Part shown: positions 43,327 through 55,099 of the stretch, one piece after another
How positions within the stretch are numbered: position 1 is the stretch's first letter
How the letters are laid out: the number at the start of each line of letters is the position of its first letter
Source: Legionella antarctica
Lineage (GTDB): Bacteria > Pseudomonadota > Gammaproteobacteria > Legionellales > Legionellaceae
Reading direction: 5' to 3'
Assembly (NCBI RefSeq): GCF_011764505.1
Contig: NZ_AP022839.1
Location: 3,447,001 to 3,511,000 of the forward strand
Length of the DNA: 64,000 nt
Notes under the pieces: model-generated
Databases searched by the model: none
The model's input: only the letters and a program-made list of their open reading frames with translations
Told to the model about the DNA's origin: nothing
Made by a program: the position numbers and the translations under genes

Positions 43327-45066
43327 ATGGCTTTGGCGTATGGAAATTTTCATGAACTTAGTCACCAATTACGTTTTTTATTATTTGAAATCGGCATAGG
43401 GTTGCCGCAAAGCAGCATTGATTATTTTATCGCTCAGGCGCATAAAAATGCCTTGGATCGCCTGCAGCACTCAGCTGTTGCGGAAGGAATAATTACCGCA
43501 CCTATAGCCAGCCACCATGTCCATGACTTTATCGATCAATTACAGATTACTTTAAAGCACTCAAATCCAGAAAGTCAATTTTATCAATGGAGTAGCATTC
43601 GCGATGAATTGGATGAATCAATTGCTAATGATGCTCTAGCCCAAGCCTATAAACAACGCTGGAACGTTCAGATTTGTAATGAAGCATATCAGTATGACAG
43701 CCTTTGGTCATGGATAAACAATAACCAGACAGCACACCAGGCGTTTCTATTTCTCGAACAATGGGGAGATCAAGGCCATCCAGATTACCCAGGTTTTCGG
43801 GCCAAGATGGGATTCACGCGGCGAGAAGTGTTACAAAAATCTCCTGAATTTCAGGCAAAAATCAGCCTCCACTGGTGTGCTTTAAGTAAACATAAAATCA
43901 ACACCGCTCCTGACTCAACTAATTTTAATGCTTTGATTGCCCGTGAATTTCCAAATGAACATAAGCTATGGCAAGAAAAGTTACAATTTAACCATTTAAA
44001 TCCACAAGAATATGTCCCTGTTCCTGTCCATCCCTGGCAATGGCGCAATAAATTACAAATCATGTGCAGTCAACTAACCGATTGCAAATCGCTTATCTTG
44101 TTTCCCCATCACCAAACAGTAATGCCATCTATGTCTTTGGACACAATGATGCCAATAGATCATTCAAACACACTCATTAAACTTGCTGTTAATGTATCTA
44201 CACCTGATCCCTCCAAAACAGCCACATCAGAAGAAGAACAATACAACTGCGCCATGGTGGATTGGATAAATTCTTTATTAACTAAATCAGACCACTATCA
44301 GAATACTTTATTTTTAGCCCACGATTTAGCTCGATTGAGAGTAAATAGCTCATCTGTTTCTAATTACTTTCAGAAGGAGCTATCGGTTAACCTTCTTCAA
44401 CACCCATCAAGTGTAATAAAAGCGGAACAAAAAATAGTCCCATTGATGAGTTTATTTGCTAACTCGCCCTTATCAAATAAACCATTACTTGTTGAAATTA
44501 TTATGGAGAGTGGCTTAACTCCAATTAATTATTTCAGCCAGTATTGCCATACGGTTTTATTAGGACAACTGCATTTATTATTGAAATACGGGGTCTCGTT
44601 AAAAGCAAAGCCTCACAACACTCTGATCATATTTAGTGACCATAGACCTCAAGGTTTAATTCTACAAAGTCTCGAAAAAATTAAAGTTGATTATTCTCCG
44701 TCCTTTGAGGAGAGCAAAAAACCTGATTTGCCCGCTACTTCAAGCATAAAATCAACCAGTCTCGATGCAATAAGAACCGTTTTTACTCATGGAACCTTGC
44801 AAAATAATCTGGGTCACTGGATAAATTGTCTAAAACAGCAGTACTCACTAGGTGCCAATCAATTATGGCATATTGTATACGATGTGATGCAAACTGTGTT
44901 AAATGATCTTTCTATGGAAATTCATCCTCGCCTTTTTTGCTGGCAAAAACATCAATTATTACACGACATATGGCAACATCAATGCCTATTAACTATGCGT
45001 TTGAAAGGTGATCTCAGTAAGGATATCTATAGAGCCAAACTCAACCCTCTTAATCCCTGTTATTAG
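43327..45066 (+). CDS. frgA: NIS siderophore synthetase FrgA (IucA/IucC family)
   Basis: 579 residues from ATG 43327, chosen over TTG 43315 because GGGGA lies six bases before it. It belongs to the NRPS-independent siderophore synthetases, which use ATP to join carboxylic acids such as citrate to amines or alcohols. Visible are QGHPDYPGFRAKMGF, the VHPWQWRNKL block, LIKLAVNVSTP and the C-terminal FhuF-like part ending HPRLFCWQKHQ. The gene is iron-repressed through the Fur box. It is apart from the legiobactin genes as far as the window shows; the exact product is not readable from sequence. Confidence 0.9.
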   Translation: MALAYGNFHELSHQLRFLLFEIGIGLPQSSIDYFIAQAHKNALDRLQHSAVAEGIITAPIASHHVHDFIDQLQITLKHSNPESQFYQWSSIRDELDESIANDALAQAYKQRWNVQICNEAYQYDSLWSWINNNQTAHQAFLFLEQWGDQGHPDYPGFRAKMGFTRREVLQKSPEFQAKISLHWCALSKHKINTAPDSTNFNALIAREFPNEHKLWQEKLQFNHLNPQEYVPVPVHPWQWRNKLQIMCSQLTDCKSLILFPHHQTVMPSMSLDTMMPIDHSNTLIKLAVNVSTPDPSKTATSEEEQYNCAMVDWINSLLTKSDHYQNTLFLAHDLARLRVNSSSVSNYFQKELSVNLLQHPSSVIKAEQKIVPLMSLFANSPLSNKPLLVEIIMESGLTPINYFSQYCHTVLLGQLHLLLKYGVSLKAKPHNTLIIFSDHRPQGLILQSLEKIKVDYSPSFEESKKPDLPATSSIKSTSLDAIRTVFTHGTLQNNLGHWINCLKQQYSLGANQLWHIVYDVMQTVLNDLSMEIHPRLFCWQKHQLLHDIWQHQCLLTMRLKGDLSKDIYRAKLNPLNPCY

Positions 45067-45115
45067 AATACAAATCATTACAAGGCTAACAAACAATCGT
45101 CTAATGGAATGCTGC

Positions 45116-45265
45116 TTAAGGGAAGCGCCCATGGTATTCAGCATCAGATAGCTGACTCAATAGCGTGACAGCGGCAACGGTATTGTATAAACTAGCTCTA
45201 TCACTGCCACTTGAAACATCCAGGATTGTGGGTGTAACTTTTGGTGCAATATATTCCCTTAACAA
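45116..45265 (-). pseudogene. antisense coding-like remnant
   Basis: On the minus strand a 50-codon frame between frgA and the phosphatidyltransferase gene reads like real protein (REYIAPKVTPTILDVSSGS, AAVTLLSQLSDAEYHGRFP). It has no ATG and no ribosome site; an in-frame stop lies a few codons upstream of TTG 45265. I read it as the surviving 3' end of a lost gene. I do not recognise the family. Confidence 0.35.
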
Positions 45266-45303
45266 TTTTTTAAAATTGGGGGATTAAAATTATCGCATGC
45301 CAC

Positions 45304-45864
45304 ATGATATTAAAACACATACCCAATGCATTAACCTTGATTCGATTAGGACTGATTGTCCCATTTCTGATGTTTCTTTATCATCATGAATACGTCTATG
45401 CATTTTACCTTTTTATTATAGCCGGATTTACTGATGGGTTAGATGGCTGGTTGGCCAGATATTTTCATTGGCAAAGCACTTTTGGTTCTTTTGTCGACCC
45501 TATGGCCGATAAATTATTAGTTGCTTCCAGCTTTATCTCCTTAGCATTAATAGGATCATTGCCATGGTGGTTGGTAATTCTTGTCTTTCTTAGAGATTTA
45601 AGTATTTCTATTGGAGTATTAGTCTGGTATTGGTGTATTCAACGTAAATTGGATTTTGTACCCACTTTATTGAGCAAGCTCAATACTACCTTCCAACTGG
45701 TGCTGGTCACTTTATGCTTATTTGAACTAGCCTACTTTCAATTTCCACAATATATAGTTAACGTACTAATCTACTTGACCGCATTTACCACGGCCACCAC
45801 TTATATCGATTACTTTTGGACTTGGGGCAGAAAAGCATGGCCCAAAAAAGATTTACCCCAATGA
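45304..45864 (+). CDS. CDP-alcohol phosphatidyltransferase (PgsA-like)
   Basis: 186 residues, four to six transmembrane helices. The CDP-OH-P signature D-x2-DG-x2-AR-x8-G-x3-D-x3-D is complete (TDGLDGWLARYFHWQSTFG followed by SFVDPMADK). The start MILKHIPNALTLIRLGLIVP is typical of PgsA-type enzymes, which make phosphatidylglycerophosphate from CDP-diacylglycerol. The substrate alcohol is inferred. Its stop overlaps the hda start (ATGA), so both are coupled. Confidence 0.88.
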   Translation: MILKHIPNALTLIRLGLIVPFLMFLYHHEYVYAFYLFIIAGFTDGLDGWLARYFHWQSTFGSFVDPMADKLLVASSFISLALIGSLPWWLVILVFLRDLSISIGVLVWYWCIQRKLDFVPTLLSKLNTTFQLVLVTLCLFELAYFQFPQYIVNVLIYLTAFTTATTYIDYFWTWGRKAWPKKDLPQ

Positions 45865-46553
45865 ACACTCAGTTGGCTTTAACAATAAAACTTAATGATG
45901 AAGCAACTCTTTCTGACTTTAACTGGGAAAATAATACGCTTCTACAACAACAACTGCAGAACATGCTCACCCTGAAAGAAGATAGGCTACTTTATTTATG
46001 GGGGCATAAGGGCAGTGGAAAATCTCATATATTACAAGCCTGCTGCCAAGCAGTCAATTTAACTCAATCTGCAATCTATCTACCCTTAATCCTTCTTAAG
46101 GAATGGGGGCCTCAAACTGTAGAGGGAATAGAAGATCAAACGTTAATTTGTATCGATGATGTCCATGCTATAGGCAATGATTCGGCTTGGGAAGAAGCAC
46201 TATTTCATTTGTATAACAAAATCAAAGATGAGGAAAAAAGTCTTTTAATTATCTCCGGAAATCAACCGCCAGCAATGCTTGCGATCAATCTTGCTGATTT
46301 ACGTTCTAGACTTGCCTGGGGATTGGTAATCCAATTGAATGAGTTAAGTGATGAAGAAAAAATTAATACTTTAAAACTGCATGCGTTTAAACGTGGGTTT
46401 GATTTGCCTGAAAGTGTTGCTCAATTTTTACTAAACCGCTGTTCGCGAAATATGCATGACTTACATCAACTGCTCAACCGATTGGATGATGCCTCTTTGG
46501 CAGCCCATCGTAAAATTACAATCCCATTTGTTAAGGATATCTTAAATATATAA
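45861..46553 (+). CDS. hda: DnaA-homologous regulator Hda
   Basis: 230 residues from ATG 45861 (MNTQLALTIKLNDEATLSDFNW), overlapping the upstream stop by four bases. It is a short AAA+ protein: Walker A GHKGSGKSH, Walker B LICIDDVHAI and the sensor LRSRLAWG, without a DnaA DNA-binding domain. With the beta clamp, Hda stimulates ATP hydrolysis by DnaA after initiation. The N-terminal QLALTIKL is a plausible clamp-binding motif (QL-x-L-x-I/L form). Confidence 0.9.
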   Translation: MNTQLALTIKLNDEATLSDFNWENNTLLQQQLQNMLTLKEDRLLYLWGHKGSGKSHILQACCQAVNLTQSAIYLPLILLKEWGPQTVEGIEDQTLICIDDVHAIGNDSAWEEALFHLYNKIKDEEKSLLIISGNQPPAMLAINLADLRSRLAWGLVIQLNELSDEEKINTLKLHAFKRGFDLPESVAQFLLNRCSRNMHDLHQLLNRLDDASLAAHRKITIPFVKDILNI

Positions 46554-46688
46554 TTCTGCTTAAGGTGCTTTGGATGAGCCTCCATTACTAACTGAAGCAC
46601 AAGGAGATCTGCATATATGAATTGCTGTAAAAAGTGCAAACTGAGAATGCTGGCCTATCACGCTTAACAACTTATTATTTAATACAAA

Positions 46689-47140
46689 ATGAATTTTCTG
46701 ATGAATAAATCAATGTTTAAAGAGATCGAGATTAATAAAATTCCAATCCATGAAAATAATGAACCTCTAATAGATTTAAAGGATCAACAGCATTTGTTAT
46801 ATGGCTCTTCTCCTGACACGCCATTAACATATAATGATTACACAAAAATGCGAAAATCCGTTTACGAAAAACTGCTTACCGCTCAATACACGAGGAAGCT
46901 TTAATAATATCTGATGAAATATCTGCTCGTAGATTTCTGGAATACGTTAATGAACGACCAGAATTAATGATCGTATATGGCCTCATTGGCAGCAATCATC
47001 TCAATATGCTCAATCAACTTGGAAAAGTAGTGTCAGAAGATGGTGATTACAAATTAATTACAGTCCAACTGCAAGACAGAACCATCCAGGTACACTTATG
47101 TGGTGGTCTTCATGGCGACATAGCTCATTATGAGCTATGA
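46689..47140 (+). pseudogene. small hypothetical gene, frameshifted
   Basis: A 71-codon frame (MNFLMNKSMFKEIEINK ... YEKLLTAQYTRKL) stops at 46904, but a second frame continues with coding character to 47138 (IHEEALIISDEISARRF, YVNERPELMIVYGLIG, VHLCGGLHGDIAHYEL). Adding one A to the five-A run at 46867-46871 joins them as YEKTAYRSIHEE and gives 150 residues. I recognise no domain. The intact form may be a small secreted or effector-type protein as is common here, but nothing shows it. The lesion could be a real mutation or a homopolymer sequencing error. Confidence 0.65.
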
Positions 47141-47443
47141 AAAATTAAATACATCAAAGTAAATAATATTAGTGATTCGGGTTCCAATAGAAAGATTTTT
47201 TCGTCAAGTTCATTTTAAAAGTTAAGTGTATTTTTCTATCACAATGAATTAGTGTGCACCCTGGATAATGGCATTAAAGGGCTTCTCCCAACGACTAAAT
47301 CATCAGAGCAATAAAAGTAGGGTTTTCTTTACTGCTCTGCTTTTGCAATCAACAGAAAATCAAGGCAAAATCGGTTAAGAAGTCTGGTTAAGTTTTCAAA
47401 ATTAATAAATTATCGAGTTTGACGAGATTAATTAACTTTTAAA
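47141..47443. other. intergenic region with one hairpin
   Basis: No ORF on either strand. An imperfect hairpin, CAGAGCA ... TGCTCTG (47304-47339) with further A-rich/T-rich pairing inside, sits about 105 bases past the mazF stop. It has no proper U-tract in either direction. Confidence 0.4.
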
Positions 47444-47776
47444 TCAATGAGCAAACATGATGGATAAAATATTTAGAGCTTCATCAGATGATTTGGATTC
47501 TAATTTCCCAAGTTTTTTTACAATCCTAGAGCGATCGATTGAACGCAACTGATCCAAAGCAATCTGCCCCTCTTTGCCCTTAAAATCTGTCCTAACTCTC
47601 GTTGGAAATGACTCGCGAATAGTACTGGTTAGGGGAGCGATGATAACTGTTTTAAGACGACTTAAATTCATTGAATCAGGCGATATAATTACCACTGGTC
47701 TTGTTTTCCTTATTTCAGATCCAATTGTTGGATCTAAATTTACCAAGCAAACATCGAACCTTTTTATATTTACCAT
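47444..47776 (-). CDS. MazF/PemK-family toxin
   Basis: 110 residues of the PemK-like fold: IKRFDVCLVNLDPTIGSEIRKTRPVVIIS carries the loop and catalytic Arg of MazF endoribonucleases, followed by IIAPLTSTIRESFPTRV and GQIALDQLRSIDRSRI. Such toxins cut mRNA at short motifs when the antitoxin is degraded. It overlaps the upstream antitoxin gene by seven bases and is translated after it. Confidence 0.92.
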   Translation of the reverse strand: MVNIKRFDVCLVNLDPTIGSEIRKTRPVVIISPDSMNLSRLKTVIIAPLTSTIRESFPTRVRTDFKGKEGQIALDQLRSIDRSRIVKKLGKLESKSSDEALNILSIMFAH

Positions 47777-48027
47777 GTCCAGTCATCTTCGTCGAATTGA
47801 TTAGATAAATCGATTATTTCGCCTTCCTGTTCAGCATCAGCAATCGCATTAAATTTTTCCATCCAGCCTTCCTGCTTACGTTTAGATGGTGTTAATAGAA
47901 TAGCCCCATCTTCATTAACAGTAATTTCCATTACTTCCCCTGGCTCTAAATGAGCGTCTTTTAACAGCGTCGAAGGTATACGAATTCCAACGGAATTTCC
48001 CCATTTTTTTAGTGAGACTGTTGACAT
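47770..48027 (-). CDS. MazE-type AbrB-fold antitoxin
   Basis: 85 residues. The N-terminal swapped-hairpin AbrB/SpoVT DNA-binding domain is clear (VSLKKWGNSVGIRIPSTLLKDA, PGEVMEITV). The acidic C-terminus (DLSNQFDEDDWTW) is the toxin-neutralising tail with aromatic anchors. The pair would autoregulate through the AT-rich palindrome before the gene. Confidence 0.92.
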   Translation of the reverse strand: MSTVSLKKWGNSVGIRIPSTLLKDAHLEPGEVMEITVNEDGAILLTPSKRKQEGWMEKFNAIADAEQEGEIIDLSNQFDEDDWTW

Positions 48028-48054
48028 AATAATTCAACCATAGTTCATACACAC

Positions 48055-48064
48055 TATAATTATA
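48055..48064 (-). promoter_or_regulatory. mazEF promoter/operator palindrome
   Basis: TATAATTATA is a perfect palindrome 28 bases before the mazE start and contains a consensus TATAAT -10 in the right orientation. ATAGT/ACTAT elements flank it. A MazE-MazF complex bound here would cover the -10. Confidence 0.55.
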
Positions 48065-48305
48065 CTATGTATAAACATAAATTTCAAGTAAAGAGAAAAC
48101 CGTCTACTAAATCACTTCAAAGGAGGATTAAAACAATACTTTTATTAATCGGTTTAATAGACTTAACAACCAAGCTATGTTGTAAAGTTAGATAACCTCA
48201 TTAAGAACAAAATTGGTTTCTATTAGGACTTACGAAAAACCCCTTGCTTAGGTAAATAGATCAATCATACAGGAGAAATTTCTCAAATAGCGGAGGTCGA
48301 TTAGA

Positions 48306-48521
48306 TTACCGCCAATATCTGTGTAGTAGTTCAAATGTGATCTGACAGTTCTCTGTTTTTTTAAAGGTATTAATTTGTAAAACACATTCTAATTTTAAAC
48401 AGAATTCGCTACATAATTTTAAATGATATGCAATAACAGTAGTCGTTATTCCTACCAAGGTGGCCCCAGGTGAAGCAATGAACAAAGATAGCGCCTCTTC
48501 AGGGATAAACTTCAGGGACAA
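48306..48521 (-). other. doubtful small ORF after the APC exporter gene; otherwise empty gap
   Basis: The 518 bases between mazE and the permease hold one open frame of 71 codons on the permease strand. It has a TTG start, no Shine-Dalgarno, and a hydrophobic middle (LSLFIASPGATLVGITTTVIAY). It begins 24 bases after the permease stop, so it could be a tiny co-transcribed membrane protein, but I rate it below even odds. I see nothing in 48065-48305. Confidence 0.25.
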
Positions 48522-48545
48522 GGAAATTAGTTTTTTGCCAACATG

Positions 48546-49808
48546 TTACCGTTTGAGATGCTGTTGCTTATGAATTATCTGAGAGTTAAAAAAAACCACA
48601 CTGGAACAAAAAAGAACCAAGGGGTATAACAAAGCCCATCCTGATGAAAACAGTAGTAACGTAAATAGCAACAGCATACCTGCTGCTAAAATTCTTGGAA
48701 AGCCATTTTTTTTAAATCGTATGTATGAAGATAAACATAATGCGTAGATAAATACAAAATTAGTGCTTACCAAAGTGACTATTGATTCAAAATGTCTTTG
48801 AATACAAGATAACACGATTAAAGCTAACGTAAATAGTATCATCAATAACAGGATAGCTCTTGCTGGTATTTGCTGATTATTTAATTCTGAAAAAAACAAA
48901 GGGAGCTTTCTCTGTTTAGCACTTGAATAAATCAACCTGGATATTCCCCAAATCCAGCTATTAAAATTAATTTGAACTGCAAAGTAGGCAAAAAGAGTAA
49001 TGATTAATGTAGGTAAAAAATGATTACCCAAGGTCTCAACCAACTGATATAAGCCAGACATCCCATTAATTTCTTCACGCGGAATAACAGATAAACAACT
49101 CAATGATAGTAACAGATACAATAAGCCACATAATACTAGTGCAATGATCATACTCAATTTAAAATCTTTGGCTGGATTTTTAAATTCACAAGCTATAAAA
49201 GTTAAATTTTCAAAGCCTGCATAGGCCCAAAATGCAACTATAATTCCAGGAAAAAAAGTAGCTGCTGACGCAACAGAGAAAGAAAAAGAACTATGCCAGG
49301 GAATTTGAGCAGGAATAAGAAAATACAGAAACAAACCCACCAAAAAAGTTAAAAAAGCAATAGAAAGCTGTACCAACGCTCCTATTTTGATACCGACGAA
49401 ATTGATTAAAATACCCGTATAAACAAGACTAAGAGCAGTAATAAATTGTGTTAGTTCACCGCCACCTAAAAAATTTTTAACGTACTCCCCCACAATAAGG
49501 GCTGAAATCGGCATTCCAATAGTTACTGTTCCAAGAAATATAATTGGGATAGATGCGCCAATACTTTCACCCAAACCCAATGAGACGAAACCCTCAATTC
49601 CACTTTCTGTTGCTACACTAACAACCATATCATTAAACAGATATAAAAGAGGAAAACAAAGTAGAGTTGTAGCAATCCATACCCAAGCAGTATTAGGTCC
49701 ACTCACTGCTGCAGTCAAAGACGGCAAAAACAATAATCCTGAGCCCATAATTGAGCCCAGCGCTAAAGAAACTCCATCTTTTAGAGTGAGTTGACGTTTT
49801 AGTGACAT
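48546..49808 (-). CDS. APC-family amino-acid transporter, YjeH-like exporter
   Basis: 420 residues with about 12 transmembrane helices. The first helix carries the APC unwound motif (SLALGSIMGSGLLFLPSL). The ACEFKNPAKDF block after helix six, and the overall length, resemble E. coli YjeH, an exporter of methionine and branched-chain amino acids. It lies 15 bases downstream of the diiron-enzyme gene on the same strand, so the two are probably an operon; an exporter beside a biosynthetic enzyme suggests it removes the product. Export direction is inferred from the YjeH likeness. Confidence 0.82.
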   Translation of the reverse strand: MSLKRQLTLKDGVSLALGSIMGSGLLFLPSLTAAVSGPNTAWVWIATTLLCFPLLYLFNDMVVSVATESGIEGFVSLGLGESIGASIPIIFLGTVTIGMPISALIVGEYVKNFLGGGELTQFITALSLVYTGILINFVGIKIGALVQLSIAFLTFLVGLFLYFLIPAQIPWHSSFSFSVASAATFFPGIIVAFWAYAGFENLTFIACEFKNPAKDFKLSMIIALVLCGLLYLLLSLSCLSVIPREEINGMSGLYQLVETLGNHFLPTLIITLFAYFAVQINFNSWIWGISRLIYSSAKQRKLPLFFSELNNQQIPARAILLLMILFTLALIVLSCIQRHFESIVTLVSTNFVFIYALCLSSYIRFKKNGFPRILAAGMLLLFTLLLFSSGWALLYPLVLFCSSVVFFNSQIIHKQQHLKR

Positions 49809-49823
49809 AATAACTTTATATCC

Positions 49824-50639
49824 TTAGTTACTAGAAGCTCTTAATTTTAAAGTTAATTGAGCAAGTCCACTCCAAAACTCAACCCAAAATTGAATACCTT
49901 GATCGAAACCTTTAATAAAGTCTTTTTTGGACACTTCATCGCTATTAAATCTTAAGAAATTAGATACAGCAAGGCGTATATGCTCACATTCGATAGCTCG
50001 ATGAATTCTAAAAAAAATAGACTTAAGTAATTGAGCCTTGATTTCCGGAGTCAGAGCCAGACCTAGAAAAAGCGTCTCAACGTTTTCTTCTGCTGGACAT
50101 TCAAGGCCTAGGAGAATACCCATAACTTCTGCGTCAGTTTTGCTTGTTGTTAGACTTTTTACAAGCTTATCTAAACTATCATTTACGCGAGAAAAGCCTT
50201 GATGCTTTTCAAAAAGACTTTCATCTACTCCTGCATCAATAGCTGCTTCACGAAATCGCTCCGGATGGATTTCATTAACATCACGCATCCCTAACTCTTC
50301 ATAAGCACCTTGAATGACATAATGTCGCTTGATGTTGTTGGAAACAACAGTTGCTGCTTTGCAGAGAATCCAAGGCATAATACTGGAAAATCGATACCAT
50401 TGAGTGGCTATAGCAACCGCCTTATGGATATCATTTCCACTAGTTTGTTCTTCAAATTGCTCAAAAATTTTTCGTTCTTTGAAACGATTTTGGAAAAAAC
50501 CAGTCCAGAAAACAACCTCTGGATGATCAGAGGTATAAAGAGCTTCTTTTACTCCTGTATAACCATACTGATTTGCAAATTTAAGCTCGTCTTTTTTTGA
50601 ATCATTAACTATTTTGCTTACCGCTGATTGCATAAACAC
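49824..50639 (-). CDS. heme-oxygenase-like diiron oxidase (HDO family)
   Basis: 271 residues, all-helical. The pattern of metal ligands of heme-oxygenase-like diiron oxidases is visible: a Glu and His in AYEELGMRDVNEIHPERF (about 113-130), a Glu in GILLGLECPAEE (about 185), and His-x3-Glu-x2-His in IHRAIECEHIRLA (about 225). Relatives such as UndA, BesC and SznF use O2 to cleave or oxidise amino or fatty acids. It has no signal peptide. It starts the two-gene unit with the APC exporter and diverges from an ATP-grasp ligase across 233 bases. The substrate cannot be told; an amino acid is likely from the neighbours. Confidence 0.72.
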   Translation of the reverse strand: MFMQSAVSKIVNDSKKDELKFANQYGYTGVKEALYTSDHPEVVFWTGFFQNRFKERKIFEQFEEQTSGNDIHKAVAIATQWYRFSSIMPWILCKAATVVSNNIKRHYVIQGAYEELGMRDVNEIHPERFREAAIDAGVDESLFEKHQGFSRVNDSLDKLVKSLTTSKTDAEVMGILLGLECPAEENVETLFLGLALTPEIKAQLLKSIFFRIHRAIECEHIRLAVSNFLRFNSDEVSKKDFIKGFDQGIQFWVEFWSGLAQLTLKLRASSN

Positions 50640-50707
50640 TCCTCAAAACTCCATGTTTAAAATTATGTTTCAGTTATATGGCTCTTATCTTACTACCTGA
50701 TTTTTCT

Positions 50708-50722
50708 ACACATAAAATGTGT
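50708..50722. promoter_or_regulatory. inverted repeat, possible operator
   Basis: ACACAT-AAA-ATGTGT, a perfect 6-bp inverted repeat with a three-base centre, 68 bases before the diiron-enzyme start and on its promoter side. It resembles a dimeric repressor site. Confidence 0.4.
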
Positions 50723-50753
50723 AAAAACAGATATGTTATATTCATTTTGCATT

Positions 50754-50788
50754 TTATCAACATGTTTTTTATATTGTCATGTTGATAA
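50754..50788. promoter_or_regulatory. 11-bp inverted repeat in divergent promoter region
   Basis: TTATCAACATG (50754-50764) and CATGTTGATAA (50778-50788) are perfect inverted copies separated by 13 AT-rich bases. Centre-to-centre spacing of 24 bases is typical of two half-sites on one DNA face. It lies between the HDO and ATP-grasp genes and could control both. A terminator is unlikely because neither flanking gene ends here. Confidence 0.5.
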
Positions 50789-50872
50789 TAATATTTTTTA
50801 TGATAAATTTCATGCCTGTATTTTTTCGAGAACTTTGAATCATCTGGATGAAAGACTCAACTGGAGGGAACT

Positions 50873-52174
50873 ATGGGAAAACATATACACAGCACTGATT
50901 TTCAGCGCAAAGAAGTATTCGTAGTCGTTGATGGGATATCGACGGGGAGACATATTGCCCCCTCCCTAAGAGGAAACGGGTATAGCGTAGTGCATGTTTG
51001 TTCTAAAAATGCCCAATCTCTTGGCATAGAACACAATCAGCACGACTATATTGCTAATCTGAAGGAAACAGACTCTATTCATGACCTCGTAGGAAGTTTT
51101 TCGGCTTTTCACGTTCGAGCTGTTATTCCAGGTGCTGAGGCAGGTGTGGAGTTAGCGGATCAATTGGGTGAGGCATTAGAACTGCCAACACGTAATGATT
51201 TTAGTAAAACAAAGGCAAGGAAAAGTAAATTTTTAATGCAGGAAACTATTCGTGAGAAAGGCTTACTTGCAGCCAATCAAACTAAAACAGATAACCTGTT
51301 TGCTTTGCTTGATTGGGTTAATAAAAACGGATTGCCAGTTGTACTAAAACCAGAAGAAAGTGCAGGTACTGACGGCGTACATTTTTGTTATAAATTGAAT
51401 GATGTCATTGATGCCTTTGGAGTCATTATGGGAAGTGACAATATTTTTAAAGCAAAAAACAAAAATGTTGTAGCCCAAGAAATGTTAGTGGGTGATGAAT
51501 TTATGGTAAATACTGTATCTTTCGGAGAAGCCATTTCAATTACTGATATTATTTTTGTACACAAGAAGGTTATTAACGGTTCACCTTTGTATGATTACTC
51601 TACAATTATTGGTCCTGAGGATAAGAGGTTCCAACTTATTTCCGATTATGTGAAGCAAGTATTACCCATACTTGGACTCAATTATGGAGCTGCTCATACT
51701 GAAGTTATTTTAACTCAGAAAGGACCTACTCTTGTGGAGGTTAATCCCAGACTAACAGGTGCTTTTGATATGTCAGCTACAAATGATGCAGTCGGTGTAA
51801 ACCATGTTTCAGTTTTAGTTCGTGCATATACTCGAAACGGTTACCTGGAAAAAAGGGCAGGTATGGATAAACCCCACCAAAAACATACCTTAACTTCCTT
51901 TTTTATTGCAGAAAAAGAGGGCATATTAATCAACGATCCGGATTTGGCACCCTTTCGCAATATTCCAGGATTTCATAGTATAAAATTTGGATATGGAAAG
52001 GGAGGAGACCTCCCAAAAACTACTAATTTGATGAATTCACCAGGTATGGTAAATTTTGTTAGTAAAAGTATGGATAAATTATTAAGCGCACATGGTATTT
52101 TTCGAAAACAAGAAAAGCAGTTTTTTGAAGAAGTATTGCCAGCAGAAGAAAGCGTGGCAAATTATAAACTTTAA
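50873..52174 (+). CDS. ATP-grasp carboxylate-amine ligase
   Basis: 433 residues with GGAGG five bases upstream. An N-terminal pre-ATP-grasp fold (VFVVVDGISTGRHIAPSL, AVIPGAEAGVELADQL) is followed by the ATP-grasp domain: VVLKPEESAGTDGVHF, VAQEMLVGDEFMVN and the Mg2+ loop PTLVEVNPRLTGAFD. Enzymes of this type (BacD, carnosine-synthase-like, BesA) join amino acids through acyl phosphates to give dipeptides or amides. It is divergent from the HDO-exporter pair. The substrates are unknown. Confidence 0.85.
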   Translation: MGKHIHSTDFQRKEVFVVVDGISTGRHIAPSLRGNGYSVVHVCSKNAQSLGIEHNQHDYIANLKETDSIHDLVGSFSAFHVRAVIPGAEAGVELADQLGEALELPTRNDFSKTKARKSKFLMQETIREKGLLAANQTKTDNLFALLDWVNKNGLPVVLKPEESAGTDGVHFCYKLNDVIDAFGVIMGSDNIFKAKNKNVVAQEMLVGDEFMVNTVSFGEAISITDIIFVHKKVINGSPLYDYSTIIGPEDKRFQLISDYVKQVLPILGLNYGAAHTEVILTQKGPTLVEVNPRLTGAFDMSATNDAVGVNHVSVLVRAYTRNGYLEKRAGMDKPHQKHTLTSFFIAEKEGILINDPDLAPFRNIPGFHSIKFGYGKGGDLPKTTNLMNSPGMVNFVSKSMDKLLSAHGIFRKQEKQFFEEVLPAEESVANYKL

Positions 52175-52522
52175 TTAGCTCTCATAATCTAGTTGATCAA
52201 GCTCATCAACACGATAGTAAACGTGCGAGCTTGGTTTCTGGTAAACCATATAAGATAGTTTTCATCATTACAGGTATTGCTCCACTATCAAACATCACAG
52301 AAATTCCACGACTCGTATTTATTTCTTCAGTTTGCTCAATTTATTGCAGGTGCTTTCATCTATCTTAGGACCATCCTGGAACTAGACAAACATGATTTTA
52401 ACAGATTACCAAGGCGATAACAGCATATAGTTTTATTGTGACAAATAGCAAAATGCATCATTATGTAGCATAACATATTAAAACGTAGTATTATGCCCAA
52501 AAATCACTTCAGGGCTTATTTC
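52175..52522. other. intergenic region with a coding-like remnant
   Basis: No intact gene. On the minus strand about 52,216-52,345 shows short runs with protein character (TSRGISVMFDSGAIPVMM, LYGLPETKLARLL) that end in stops, with a second frame (HVYYRVDELDQLDYES) taking over. This looks like the frameshifted end of a lost gene. The promoter for the ParD-like gene should be in the last 80 bases. Confidence 0.35.
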
Positions 52523-52735
52523 ATGGGTATTGTTAAAATTTCGGATGAATTGCATGATGCGGCTAAAATTATGGCTAAAGCAATGAGCCGATCCGTTAAT
52601 TCGCAAGCAGAGTATTGGCTACGCATTGGAAAAGTAATTGAAGAAAATCCAACGTTTACTTACGCCGATGCAATTATTTTTTTGGTTAATCAAGCAGCAA
52701 TGGAGACAAATGACGATGTTTGCGAAAACTCATGA
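52523..52735 (+). CDS. ParD-like antitoxin/DNA-binding protein
   Basis: 70 residues from ATG 52523 (AGGG nine bases upstream; an ATG at 52493 would add ten residues). VKISDELHDAAKIMAKAMSR and SVNSQAEYWLRIGKVIEENP form the ribbon-helix-helix ParD_like family. Its 3' end overlaps the methionine aminopeptidase gene by 26 bases. No toxin of the ParE type is present; the partner in this operon is map. Confidence 0.75.
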   Translation: MGIVKISDELHDAAKIMAKAMSRSVNSQAEYWLRIGKVIEENPTFTYADAIIFLVNQAAMETNDDVCENS

Positions 52736-53483
52736 TGAAATTCAAAAAATGAGGGTTGCTGGACGCCTCGCCTCCTCCGTATTAGAAATGATCAAAGCTT
52801 TTGTTCTTCCTGGAATAACTACTGGAGAACTGGAACAAATCTGTAGAAGATATATAGTTGACAATTTACAGGCTATTCCCTCTTCATTAAATCATCATGG
52901 ATTTCCAGGTTGCATTTGCACGTCTTTAAATCATGTAGTATGTCATGGTATTCCTTCGAATAAGAAAAAATTAAATGACGGCGATATTCTTAATATTGAT
53001 GTCACGGTAAAAAAAGACGGCTTTATCGCGGATACCAGTAAAATGTTTTTTGTTGGTAAAACCAAACCTTTTGCCGAACGACTGGTAAACGTAGCTCAAG
53101 AATGTCTTTACAAAGCAATCCATATTGTTCGTCCAGGAGTGCACCTTGGAAATATTGGACATATTATCCAGCAACATGCTGAATTACATAATTACTCTGT
53201 AGTTCGTGAATTTGGTGGCCATGGAATAGGTCGCGAAATGTGGGAAGAGCCTTATGTTTCTCACTTTGGTAAATCTGATTCAGGATTGCAACTATGCGCT
53301 GGAATGACCTTCACAATAGAGCCTATGATTAACCAGGGTAAAAAAGAGGTCCGCACTTTGTCGGATAATTGGACCGTGGTCACGAAAGATCATCAATTGT
53401 CTGCTCAGTGGGAGCACACTATACTAGTGACTGAAACAGGTTTTGAGGTTCTGACCGCCAGGCAAGAAGAGTTTTTCCTCTAA
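52710..53483 (+). CDS. map: methionine aminopeptidase type I
   Basis: 257 residues from ATG 52710, with GGAG four bases upstream; another Met is two codons in. The five metal ligands are all present: Asp in LNIDVTV, Asp in IADTSKMF, His in GGHGIGREM, Glu in TIEPMI and Glu in QWEHTILV; HGIP supplies the extra His. It removes the N-terminal Met of nascent proteins. Since it is coupled to a ParD-like gene and is far from rpsB/tsf in this window, it is probably an additional copy rather than the sole housekeeping map. It ends four bases inside the convergent POT gene. Confidence 0.92.
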   Translation: MTMFAKTHDEIQKMRVAGRLASSVLEMIKAFVLPGITTGELEQICRRYIVDNLQAIPSSLNHHGFPGCICTSLNHVVCHGIPSNKKKLNDGDILNIDVTVKKDGFIADTSKMFFVGKTKPFAERLVNVAQECLYKAIHIVRPGVHLGNIGHIIQQHAELHNYSVVREFGGHGIGREMWEEPYVSHFGKSDSGLQLCAGMTFTIEPMINQGKKEVRTLSDNWTVVTKDHQLSAQWEHTILVTETGFEVLTARQEEFFL

Positions 53484-54982
53484 TGGCTGGGAATATAAGT
53501 AGTAGAGTATTCAACTGCTTCTATTTTATGTTCGTCCTTAGCAGTATTGGAACAAATATAGCGACTCAAGCGTGGTGAGAGAAGCCACATACACAAAGCA
53601 ATAATCAGAGTCACAATACCTATCCAGGCAAACACATCAGTATAAATCAGCAGTGATTCAACTCCAGGTTTGATGTTGGTGGGCAGAGCGGTATAAGACG
53701 CTACTGTGGCTCCGATAAAACCAGCAACCGCTGAAGTTAAAAACCACATACCCATTACGAAGCCAGCAATTCGCTGTGGAACCAACTCAGCAACCATTGC
53801 CACGCCCAAAGCAGAGACTAGTAACTCACCAAGACTTTGAAATAAATAACTGGAGATTAGCCACCATGATGAAACCATCCCATTTCCTGTATAAAAATAA
53901 CGGGCAAAATAGAGCATGAGAAAACTCACGGCACACATGGTCATACCTAAAGCAAATTTATATGGAATAGAAAATAAAATACCTTTTTGATTAAGCTTGC
54001 CGTAAACATAAGCCAAGACCGGACTCATCAAAATGATCCAGATTGGATTTAAAGCCTGAAAACTCTGAGCATCAATAGTAATGCCAAAAAAAGTCGGTAT
54101 TACATTATTTACTGCAAATAAATTAATTGAAGTAGGCATCTGTTGATATAAGGTGAAAAAGATGACCGCCTCTAGCATTAGAGCAAAAGCAACCAACATC
54201 CGCATATAGGATGCCTTACATTCCTTACGCATCAAATAAGCGTAAATACTAACTACAATGAATGTAATAACCCATAATAAATTTTTAGCGAGCATGACGT
54301 GTTGTAATAAATAGGCAGCCAATTCCGTAAAAACAAACACCCCAGCCAAAACAACAATCCAATAAGGCAAACTAATAATTCGCTTATCCGCCAAGGTGTT
54401 GATATGAGCAACATGTTGATGTTGAAACCAATAATTGGCAAGGCCGATAACGAGGCCCACTGCACTAATGAAATAGGCATAAGAATAGCCGTAGCGGCTC
54501 GAAATAGCTGGACCTACAAATAAAGCCACCATACTCCCTAAATTAATTGCCATATAATACAGAGTAAATCCACCATGCAAGCGAGGATCATGTGCTTCAT
54601 AACATTTAGACAATAAATTTGATGGATTCGCTTTAAACAAACCATTACCAACACATATTAATCCCAATGCAAAAAAAACATGTTGTTTGTCAGTCAACGC
54701 CAGTGAACAATAGCCCACCGCTAGTACAATCAGTCCTAAAACTATAGTCCGCTTCGTACCAAGTACCCTGTCCCCCAAATAACCACCAATGACCACCATA
54801 CCATAAACCAAGGCCGAATAAGCACCAAAAGTGTAGTAAGATGCCACATCACTGTAACCCAGAAAGCGAATAAAATAGAGAGCCAGAACTCCTTGCACCG
54901 TATAAAAACCAAACCGCTCCCATAGTTCTAACATAAAAATCATCTGAAATGCGCGTGGTTGCTCACGGAAAAGGGTCAGCAT
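53480..54982 (-). CDS. POT/PTR-family proton-dependent oligopeptide transporter
   Basis: 500 residues with 12-14 transmembrane helices. The proton-coupling ExxER motif is LELWERFGFYTVQGVLALY near residue 20. The second signature is GGYLGDRVLGTKRTI, and GNGLFKANPSNLLSK matches the PTR2 loop. It would take up di- and tripeptides with protons, fitting a bacterium that lives on amino acids. Monocistronic; convergent with map. Confidence 0.92.
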   Translation of the reverse strand: MLTLFREQPRAFQMIFMLELWERFGFYTVQGVLALYFIRFLGYSDVASYYTFGAYSALVYGMVVIGGYLGDRVLGTKRTIVLGLIVLAVGYCSLALTDKQHVFFALGLICVGNGLFKANPSNLLSKCYEAHDPRLHGGFTLYYMAINLGSMVALFVGPAISSRYGYSYAYFISAVGLVIGLANYWFQHQHVAHINTLADKRIISLPYWIVVLAGVFVFTELAAYLLQHVMLAKNLLWVITFIVVSIYAYLMRKECKASYMRMLVAFALMLEAVIFFTLYQQMPTSINLFAVNNVIPTFFGITIDAQSFQALNPIWIILMSPVLAYVYGKLNQKGILFSIPYKFALGMTMCAVSFLMLYFARYFYTGNGMVSSWWLISSYLFQSLGELLVSALGVAMVAELVPQRIAGFVMGMWFLTSAVAGFIGATVASYTALPTNIKPGVESLLIYTDVFAWIGIVTLIIALCMWLLSPRLSRYICSNTAKDEHKIEAVEYSTTYIPSH

Positions 54983-55099
54983 GAGTTTTATCCTTGGAGG
55001 CTAAATTTTTAAATTAAAGGAATTTGTTATTTTTTGCAATGAGCTTTTAAATATATGATGCTGACCTTACAGACCTGCCACTCAGTTAAGAACCGCATC

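What the first reader, a model, noticed from the sequence alone, without database searches (positions are those of the whole stretch)
48546..52174. HDO enzyme, ATP-grasp ligase and amino-acid exporter: candidate small-molecule pathway
Seen: a heme-oxygenase-like protein with the full E/H ... E ... HxxxExxH ligand pattern, 15 bases upstream of a YjeH-like exporter, divergent from an ATP-grasp ligase. Known: in the Streptomyces bes cluster an HDO (BesC) makes a terminal alkene from an amino acid, an ATP-grasp enzyme (BesA) conjugates the product and a transporter exports it. Inference: this trio may make and export an unsaturated amino acid or a dipeptide. No halogenase or PLP enzyme is present, so the product would differ from that of Bes. 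I know of no described product for this locus.
Basis: partly seen in the sequence, partly recalled or inferred. Interest (0 to 1): 0.75.

Follow-up and report, generated by a model that had tools for sequence, protein, structure and literature searches.

The report
Acquired amino-acid oxidase, ligase, exporter cluster
A small block of foreign genes in a Legionella-like bacterium appears to encode an iron enzyme that oxidises an amino acid, a ligase that joins it to another one, and a transporter that may pump the product out; the product is unknown.

Summary
Three intact genes lie where stated: an APC/YjeH-like transporter, an HDO 15 nt upstream of it, and a divergent free-standing ATP-grasp ligase. 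The HDO has one clear relative in the other 142 genomes searched in the order (35% identity, another genus); there too an ATP-grasp ligase follows, overlapping by 14 nt, from another branch of that family. All six proposed iron ligands (E115, H125, E180, H213, E217, H220) are among 14 invariant columns of an alignment with that relative, BesC and a Pantoea plasmid HDO. A ligase of the window's own group (31% identity) sits with an MFS-like transporter and an SznF-like HDO in a third genome of the family. The cluster lies in a roughly 5.9-kb segment absent at this site from three other species, with low GC3. It is not a BesC or CADD by model or motif, the ligase is DdaF-like rather than bes-like, and the transporter family differs from bes. 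HDO plus ATP-grasp is a known recurring pairing (1,447 HDOs, PMC13185094). I read this as a new minimal variant making an oxidised amino acid or dipeptide; the chemistry is inferred.

The parts
49824..50639 (-). heme-oxygenase-like (HDO) di-metal oxidase; candidate ligands E115, H125, E180, H213, E217, H220; likely start ATG at 50633
48546..49808 (-). APC-family amino-acid transporter, YjeH-like, probably the same operon as the HDO (15-nt gap)
   Evidence: (PRK11021 176.8 bits, under its cut-off 284)
50873..52174 (+). free-standing ATP-grasp L-amino-acid ligase of the PRK07206/DdaF-like group, divergent
50640..50872 (.). 233-bp divergent intergenic region holding promoter-like sites for both directions
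   Evidence: the promoter-like count in 46500-52700, 20, is not above the shuffle mean 23.7
50754..50788 (.). perfect 11-bp inverted repeat with a 13-nt spacer, overlapping promoter-like hexamers of both directions; candidate shared operator
   Evidence: 13 of 2000 shuffles reach an arm of 11 or more; one copy in the window
46554..52449 (.). segment without counterpart at the same site in three other species of the genus: acquired or variable insert
47444..47776 (-). MazF/PemK-like toxin gene in the same insert
47770..48027 (-). MazE-like antitoxin gene in the same insert

Best explanation
A minimal, horizontally acquired specialised-metabolite cluster. The HDO binds two iron ions (or Fe/Mn) in an E-H-E-H-E-H site, activates O2, and oxidises (desaturates, cleaves or N-oxygenates) an aliphatic amino acid, or that residue in a dipeptide. 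The ATP-grasp enzyme activates a carboxylate as acyl phosphate and joins it to an amino acid, giving a modified dipeptide. The YjeH-like carrier, probably made from the same transcript as the HDO, moves the modified amino acid or dipeptide out and so also protects the producer. Shown by sequence: gene identities, conserved ligands, recurring HDO/ligase pairing, insertion as a block. Inferred: metal content, reaction, substrate class (a Met/Leu/Ile/Val-like side chain is my guess from YjeH's known cargo), order of steps, export direction, and shared control through the palindrome.
For: All six ligands are among the 14 invariant columns of 288 in the four-way alignment; with an SznF-like HDO added, five stay invariant and the place of E217 holds Asp, the other usual ligand. 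Profile A1 against ten other HDOs of the genus: 95.2% probability, E 2.6e-8. HDO subfamily members lie next to an ATP-grasp ligase in 2 of 2 genomes, out of 143 searched in the order. In L096 (same family, another genus) a ligase 31% identical over 339 columns, itself PRK07206 at 511.8 bits, lies with an MFS-like transporter and an SznF-like HDO, all on one strand. Baseline: an ATP-grasp of this type appears in 6 of 20 fetched stretches around other genus HDOs, the six looking like one orthologous operon. Nothing in 46554-52449 matches L101, L102 or L103 by blastn at E 1e-5. GC3 is 0.25-0.27 against 0.33-0.36 in five flanking genes. In 7 opened of 73 plasmid records with related ligases, 6 show an MFS/DMT transporter and 5 a Fe/2OG-type oxygenase in the stretch. 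HDO near ATP-grasp: 1,447 of at least 19,778 HDOs (PMC13185094).
Against: Only one relative of this HDO was found in what I searched, and its ligase is a different branch (24% identity over 267 columns). The window ligase's closest relatives by identity (35-37%: L003, L004, L092) show no HDO in the stretches read, 4.3 kb for the first two. Of 12 ligase-centred stretches fetched, only L096 has an HDO. None of the 7 plasmid neighbourhoods has an annotated HDO (the gene tables there are incomplete). Divergent genes need not share a pathway. No transporter could be seen in G801, whose contig is 4,021 bp. The transporter falls under the YjeH model cut-off. No structure was obtained.
Confidence: 0.65

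Rival explanations
1. Bes-like chemistry proper: the HDO is functionally a BesC, fragmenting lysine (or a substituted lysine) to an allylglycine-type terminal alkene, which the ligase conjugates and the carrier exports.
For: BesC was the only HDO hit in the PDB by the two-member profile (E 0.004); shared HxxxExxH in the last helix; BesC-like HDOs on Pantoea and Burkholderia plasmids also pair with ATP-grasp genes.
Against: No hit to the BesC equivalog model NF042919, which the Pantoea HDO does hit at 73 bits; E-x9-H against E-x6-H spacing; no halogenase or PLP enzyme in the insert; no significant similarity between the ligases (E 1.0).
Confidence: 0.12
2. Mangotoxin-like order: the ligase first makes a dipeptide and the HDO then desaturates a residue inside it (a version of the best explanation, so the odds overlap).
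For: MboA acts on a tripeptide made by two ATP-grasp ligases (PMC13185094); the ligase resembles the dipeptide-forming DdaF (its activity recalled).
Against: Only one ligase here; no reductase partner like MboB seen in the insert; MboA spacing E86-H89 differs from E115-H125.
Confidence: 0.25
3. Unrelated cargo: HDO and transporter form one function, the divergent ligase another, put together by chance at a site that collects genes.
For: Divergent orientation; the same site holds other genes in three other species; most ligase kin examined are not beside an HDO.
Against: HDO and ligase adjacent again in G801 with a 14-nt overlap; HDO, transporter and a ligase of the window's group together in L096; palindrome between the divergent genes; known recurrence of the pairing.
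Confidence: 0.15
4. CADD/PabS-type self-sacrificing p-aminobenzoate synthase, with transporter and ligase incidental.
For: Nine-HDO profile A2 matches CADD (E 9e-13); known from another intracellular bacterium.
Against: No hit to the CADD model TIGR04305; the sacrificial Tyr27 aligns to Phe59, and the relative has Phe as well.
Confidence: 0.03

Closest known systems
BesC and the bes cluster (Streptomyces cattleya)
   Same: HDO with an E-H-E-H-E-H ligand set including HxxxExxH; HDO, ATP-grasp and transporter genes together
   Different: E-x9-H spacing; DdaF-like rather than bes ligase; APC rather than EamA carrier; no halogenase or PLP enzyme
SznF-like HDO/transporter/ligase operon of L096 (same bacterial family)
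   Same: HDO with E-x9-H spacing, a transporter and a PRK07206 ligase 31% identical to the window's
   Different: HDO is a 453-aa SznF homologue (E 7.9e-91, aligned through the cupin part); carrier MFS-like; window HDO has no cupin domain
MboA and the mangotoxin operon (Pseudomonas syringae)
   Same: HDO working with free-standing ATP-grasp amino-acid ligases
   Different: two ligases, a dedicated reductase and a deiminase there; the last two were not seen here
Dapdiamide A synthase DdaF / PRK07206 ligases
   Same: ligase passes the PRK07206 subfamily cut-off; 238 bits to DdaF
   Different: far under the DdaF equivalog cut-off of 840; partner enzymes of dapdiamide not seen
YjeH, methionine and branched-chain amino-acid exporter (E. 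coli)
   Same: APC family, full-length match, same size
   Different: 176.8 bits against a cut-off of 284; lies beside an HDO gene
Pantoea sp. CCBC3-3-1 and Burkholderia glumae plasmid operons (L107, L114)
   Same: EamA transporter, HDO and ATP-grasp in one operon
   Different: also PLP enzyme, FAD oxidoreductase and TauD dioxygenase; Pantoea HDO 24% and ligase 21% identical to the window's

Membership tests
HDO superfamily | 3 His / 3 carboxylate ligand set E-H-E-H-(D/E)-H | tested here: met
   E115 H125 E180 H213 E217 H220 invariant in the four-way alignment; motif definition from PMC11363339 passages
HDO superfamily | profile membership (PF14518) | tested here: inconclusive
   28.1 bits against cut-off 28.9, 29.0 and over the cut-off in the genome search; relative 33.7 bits
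HDO superfamily | seven-helix fold with ligands converging | not testable with these tools
BesC (4-chloro-allylglycine synthase) | equivalog model NF042919 (cut-off 500 bits) | tested here: not met
   no NCBIfam hit at E 0.1; BesC itself 554 bits
BesC (4-chloro-allylglycine synthase) | E-x6-H spacing of the first two ligands | tested here: not met
   E-x9-H in the window HDO
bes-type cluster | halogenase and PLP enzyme beside the HDO | tested here: not met
   not among the ORFs of the insert
SznF | HDO fused to a C-terminal cupin | tested here: not met
   271 aa, PF14518 match ends at residue 252; L096 shows the fused form
CADD/PabS p-aminobenzoate synthase | sacrificial Tyr27 | tested here: not met
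   Phe59 at that place
CADD/PabS p-aminobenzoate synthase | model TIGR04305 | tested here: not met
   no hit
ATP-grasp L-amino-acid ligase, PRK07206 | subfamily cut-off 302 bits | tested here: met
   316.9 bits
ATP-grasp L-amino-acid ligase, PRK07206 | nucleotide- and Mg-binding motifs (KP..SAGTDGV; E289, N291, R293) | tested here: met
   present; KP..SAGTD.V, E289 and R293 shared with solved ligase 30vh, where N291 is Ala; the assignment of these roles is recalled
Dapdiamide A synthase (DdaF) | equivalog cut-off 840 bits | tested here: not met
   238 bits
YjeH exporter | equivalog PRK11021 cut-off 284 bits | tested here: not met
   176.8 bits
APC amino-acid permeases | PF13520 cut-off 27 bits | tested here: met
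   123.5 bits

The most novel reading that the evidence does not exclude
One of the smallest HDO pathways: one HDO of an undescribed subfamily and one ligase, with no other tailoring enzyme or dedicated reductase gene, suffice to place a reactive group (alkene, alkyne, azetidine, nitro or nitrile) on an aliphatic amino acid inside a dipeptide, exported by an APC carrier recruited for the purpose, as a weapon or signal of an amoeba-dwelling bacterium.
Probability: 0.2. Interest if true: 0.7.

Novelty: new variant of a known kind. Interest (0 to 1): 0.5.

Why it matters
HDOs perform an unusual range of O2 chemistry on amino acids and only about a dozen had been validated by early 2026 (PMC13108848). 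A three-gene cluster with a single tailoring enzyme would be among the easier ones in which to read the chemistry from the product. It also shows that a Legionella-like family carries several small, NRPS-free HDO/ligase clusters; the survey of Legionella secondary metabolism PMC5126622, built on antiSMASH classes, does not contain the word ATP-grasp in its main text.

Tried and rejected
Relatives of the HDO were sought and not found in 44 other genomes of the genus (E 1e-5), 368 others of the class (E 1e-4), 397 others of the phylum except one weak hit (G751, E 0.008; none at E 0.001 with profile A1), 72,556 plasmid records, 50,697 phage records, viral contigs and GTDB contigs. The contig scans use short peptide patterns, mostly exact. 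The same kind of scan found no ligase relative in GTDB contigs, although 30% relatives exist in plasmids, so these nulls mean little.

A degenerate DNA pattern for the last helix was uninformative: 9 matches in the genome against 10 for its control, none at the HDO. BesC identity was rejected on model and spacing, CADD identity on the missing tyrosine, SznF identity on the missing cupin. No PADLOC hit for the five proteins scanned, no Rfam hit over the gathering scores in 46500-52700, no PHROGs hit for the HDO, its relative or the ligase. The ATP-grasp tree leaves the window ligase on a long branch, joined to L105/L088/L089 with 89/84 support only; L096 is unresolved in it, and the tool flags L074 and L107 as long. 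The palindrome is suggestive, not proof.

It favours the unit reading, so I raised the best explanation from 0.60 to 0.65 and lowered unrelated cargo from 0.20 to 0.15.

No paper describing this locus was found in searches of the held open-access library (of I saw only the listed 15 of 46 and 25 of 92). The supplement of PMC13185094, which may contain this locus, could not be read. Papers: PMC13185094 text parts 1-3 of 6 and reference parts 1-2 of 3; PMC13108848 parts 1-3 of 6 and passages; PMC11363339, PMC5126622 and PMC8140960 passages only; PMC12335807 and PMC7848743 not held.
Full report
WHAT IS THERE. One search confirms the three ORFs at the stated coordinates, orientation and 15-nt spacing. 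Gene content in the window (a FslA/IucA-type siderophore synthetase, hda and others) reads as a Legionella species or close kin; this is my recall and no call names the organism. Pfam and NCBIfam give an APC amino-acid permease, a borderline PF14518 HDO and an ATP-grasp ligase that passes the PRK07206 subfamily cut-off. The ligase matches a solved L-amino-acid ligase (30vh, E 2.6e-57).

IS THE HDO REAL. A single-sequence search of the PDB finds nothing up to E 1, but the protein has one clear relative, in genome G801 of another genus of the same family: 35% identity, E 1.2e-38, the only other match at E 0.01 in the 143 genomes of the order. The profile of the two hits BesC, weakly (E 0.004), and no other HDO; the only other hit up to E 5 is an ankyrin protein at 0.12. 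The relative alone hits no HDO in the PDB. Compared profile to profile with ten other HDOs of the genus, none from the window, it gives 95.2% probability and E 2.6e-8. In the alignment of the window HDO, its relative, a Pantoea plasmid HDO and BesC, 14 columns are invariant and all six expected ligands are among them: E115, H125, E180, H213, E217, H220. With the SznF-like HDO of L096 added, five of the six stay invariant and the place of E217 holds Asp. The E-x9-H spacing is that of FlcD (E181, H191; PMC11363339 passages) and of L096, not of BesC (E-x6-H). Convergence in a model could not be tested because structure prediction failed once and was then off.

DO THE GENES BELONG TOGETHER. In G801 the HDO gene is followed, with a 14-nt overlap, by an ATP-grasp ligase with an L-amino-acid-ligase C-terminal domain; it is only 24% identical to the window's ligase over 267 columns. 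So both members of this HDO subfamily that I found sit beside a ligase, but ligases of different branches. A third genome of the family, G865 (L096), has in one direction a 453-aa SznF homologue (E 7.9e-91, aligned through the cupin part), an MFS-like transporter (MFS_1 E 0.0013, under its cut-off; an H+ antiporter model E 1.3e-9, also under its cut-off) and a ligase of the window's group (31% identity over 339 columns; PRK07206 511.8 bits). That is the same three-part logic with a different HDO.

BASELINE AND COUNTER-EVIDENCE. PF14518 hits occur in 27 of 45 genus genomes, at 42 places, the window's own among them. I fetched 20 stretches around them, holding 22 of the 41 other places. An ATP-grasp of this type was seen in six stretches, L053-L058, which look like one orthologous operon of HDO, methyltransferase-like protein and ligase, with a hydrolase and an EamA-type exporter in the five whose contigs reach that far (only one member of each gene type was scanned, apart from the HDO). 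Some of the contigs are short. Of 12 ligase-centred stretches fetched (of 31 places listed), only L096 has an HDO. The window ligase's nearest relatives (35-37% identity) lie with a chorismate mutase, aminotransferase, SDR and DMT exporter. Of 73 plasmid records with a related ligase I opened seven among the best-ranked: six show an MFS or DMT transporter and five a Fe/2OG-type oxygenase in the stretch, but none an annotated HDO. The ligase family thus often lies near an oxygenase and a transporter; here an HDO and an APC carrier would fill those places (inference).

ACQUISITION. hda and the MetAP/peptide-transporter flank are conserved. In sister species G013 the flanks match at 81-85% nucleotide identity (44006-46553 and 52450-55053) and nothing between 46554 and 52449 does; G007 and G014 likewise lack it, and the MetAP gene at this site too, and hold other genes there. 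The HDO and the transporter have no match in the other 44 genomes of the genus (E 1e-5, E 1e-20); the ligase has only relatives of 36% identity or less there. GC3 of the three genes is 0.25-0.27 against 0.33-0.36 in the five flanking genes measured. A MazEF pair lies in the same insert.

CONTROL REGION. The 233-bp divergent region holds a perfect 11-bp inverted repeat (50754-50788) overlapping promoter-like hexamers in both directions. Thirteen of 2000 dinucleotide shuffles reach an arm of 11 or more. That fits a shared operator but does not prove one, and promoter-like sites in 46500-52700 are no more frequent than in shuffles.

HOW IT MOST LIKELY WORKS. O2 activation at a di-metal site of the HDO oxidises an amino acid or a residue in a dipeptide; the ligase makes the peptide bond at the cost of ATP; the carrier exports the product. 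YjeH exports Met, Leu, Ile and Val in E. coli (PMC8140960 passages), which makes an aliphatic hydrophobic product my preferred guess, with low confidence because the protein is under the YjeH cut-off. Whether the HDO acts before or after ligation is open: BesC acts on 4-chloro-lysine, MboA on a ligase-made tripeptide.

COMPARISON. The pairing of HDO and ATP-grasp is already recognised: 1,447 such HDOs and at least 25 cluster types (PMC13185094). Bes-like relatives on Pantoea and Burkholderia plasmids pair too, each with an EamA transporter, while a Scytonema one sits by an NRPS instead. The window cluster differs from bes in HDO subfamily, ligase branch, transporter family and absence of a halogenase and PLP enzyme, and from mbo in showing no reductase, second ligase or deiminase. 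I therefore call it a new variant of a known kind.

Noticed in passing
L096:8716-12875 (G865, same family, another genus): An operon of an SznF-like HDO-cupin protein (E 7.9e-91 to SznF), an MFS-like transporter and a PRK07206 ATP-grasp ligase: a candidate N-nitroso peptide cluster in a Legionella-like genome.
   Followed up: partly
L053-L058 (six genomes of the genus): A different HDO (308-309 aa), methyltransferase-like protein and ATP-grasp ligase, followed by a serine hydrolase and an EamA-type exporter where the contig reaches: a second HDO/ligase cluster. A flavin reductase-like gene precedes it in L053-L055, a class II DAHP synthase in L056-L058 (one of each scanned).
   Followed up: partly
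L003, L004, L092: SDR, DMT exporter, ATP-grasp ligase, chorismate mutase and aminotransferase in one operon, with a class II DAHP synthase upstream in L092: a shikimate-derived dipeptide cluster, in logic like bacilysin (recalled).
   Followed up: partly
L107 (Pantoea sp. CCBC3-3-1, 96-kb plasmid): BesC-like operon with EamA, HDO, PLP enzyme, FAD oxidoreductase, TauD dioxygenase and ATP-grasp, close to phage portal and head genes: a specialised-metabolite operon on what looks like a phage-plasmid. A 61% identical HDO in a like operon sits near transposases in L114.
   Followed up: partly
L074:299-1513: A protein with two DUF2000 domains directly upstream of the HDO/ligase pair in G801.
   Followed up: no
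L059:1733-8276: HDO gene near a nitronate monooxygenase and an enoyl-CoA hydratase family gene.
   Followed up: no
window 46689-47140: Two short ORFs (71 and 57 aa) without Pfam hits, possibly gene remnants at the edge of the insert.
   Followed up: partly
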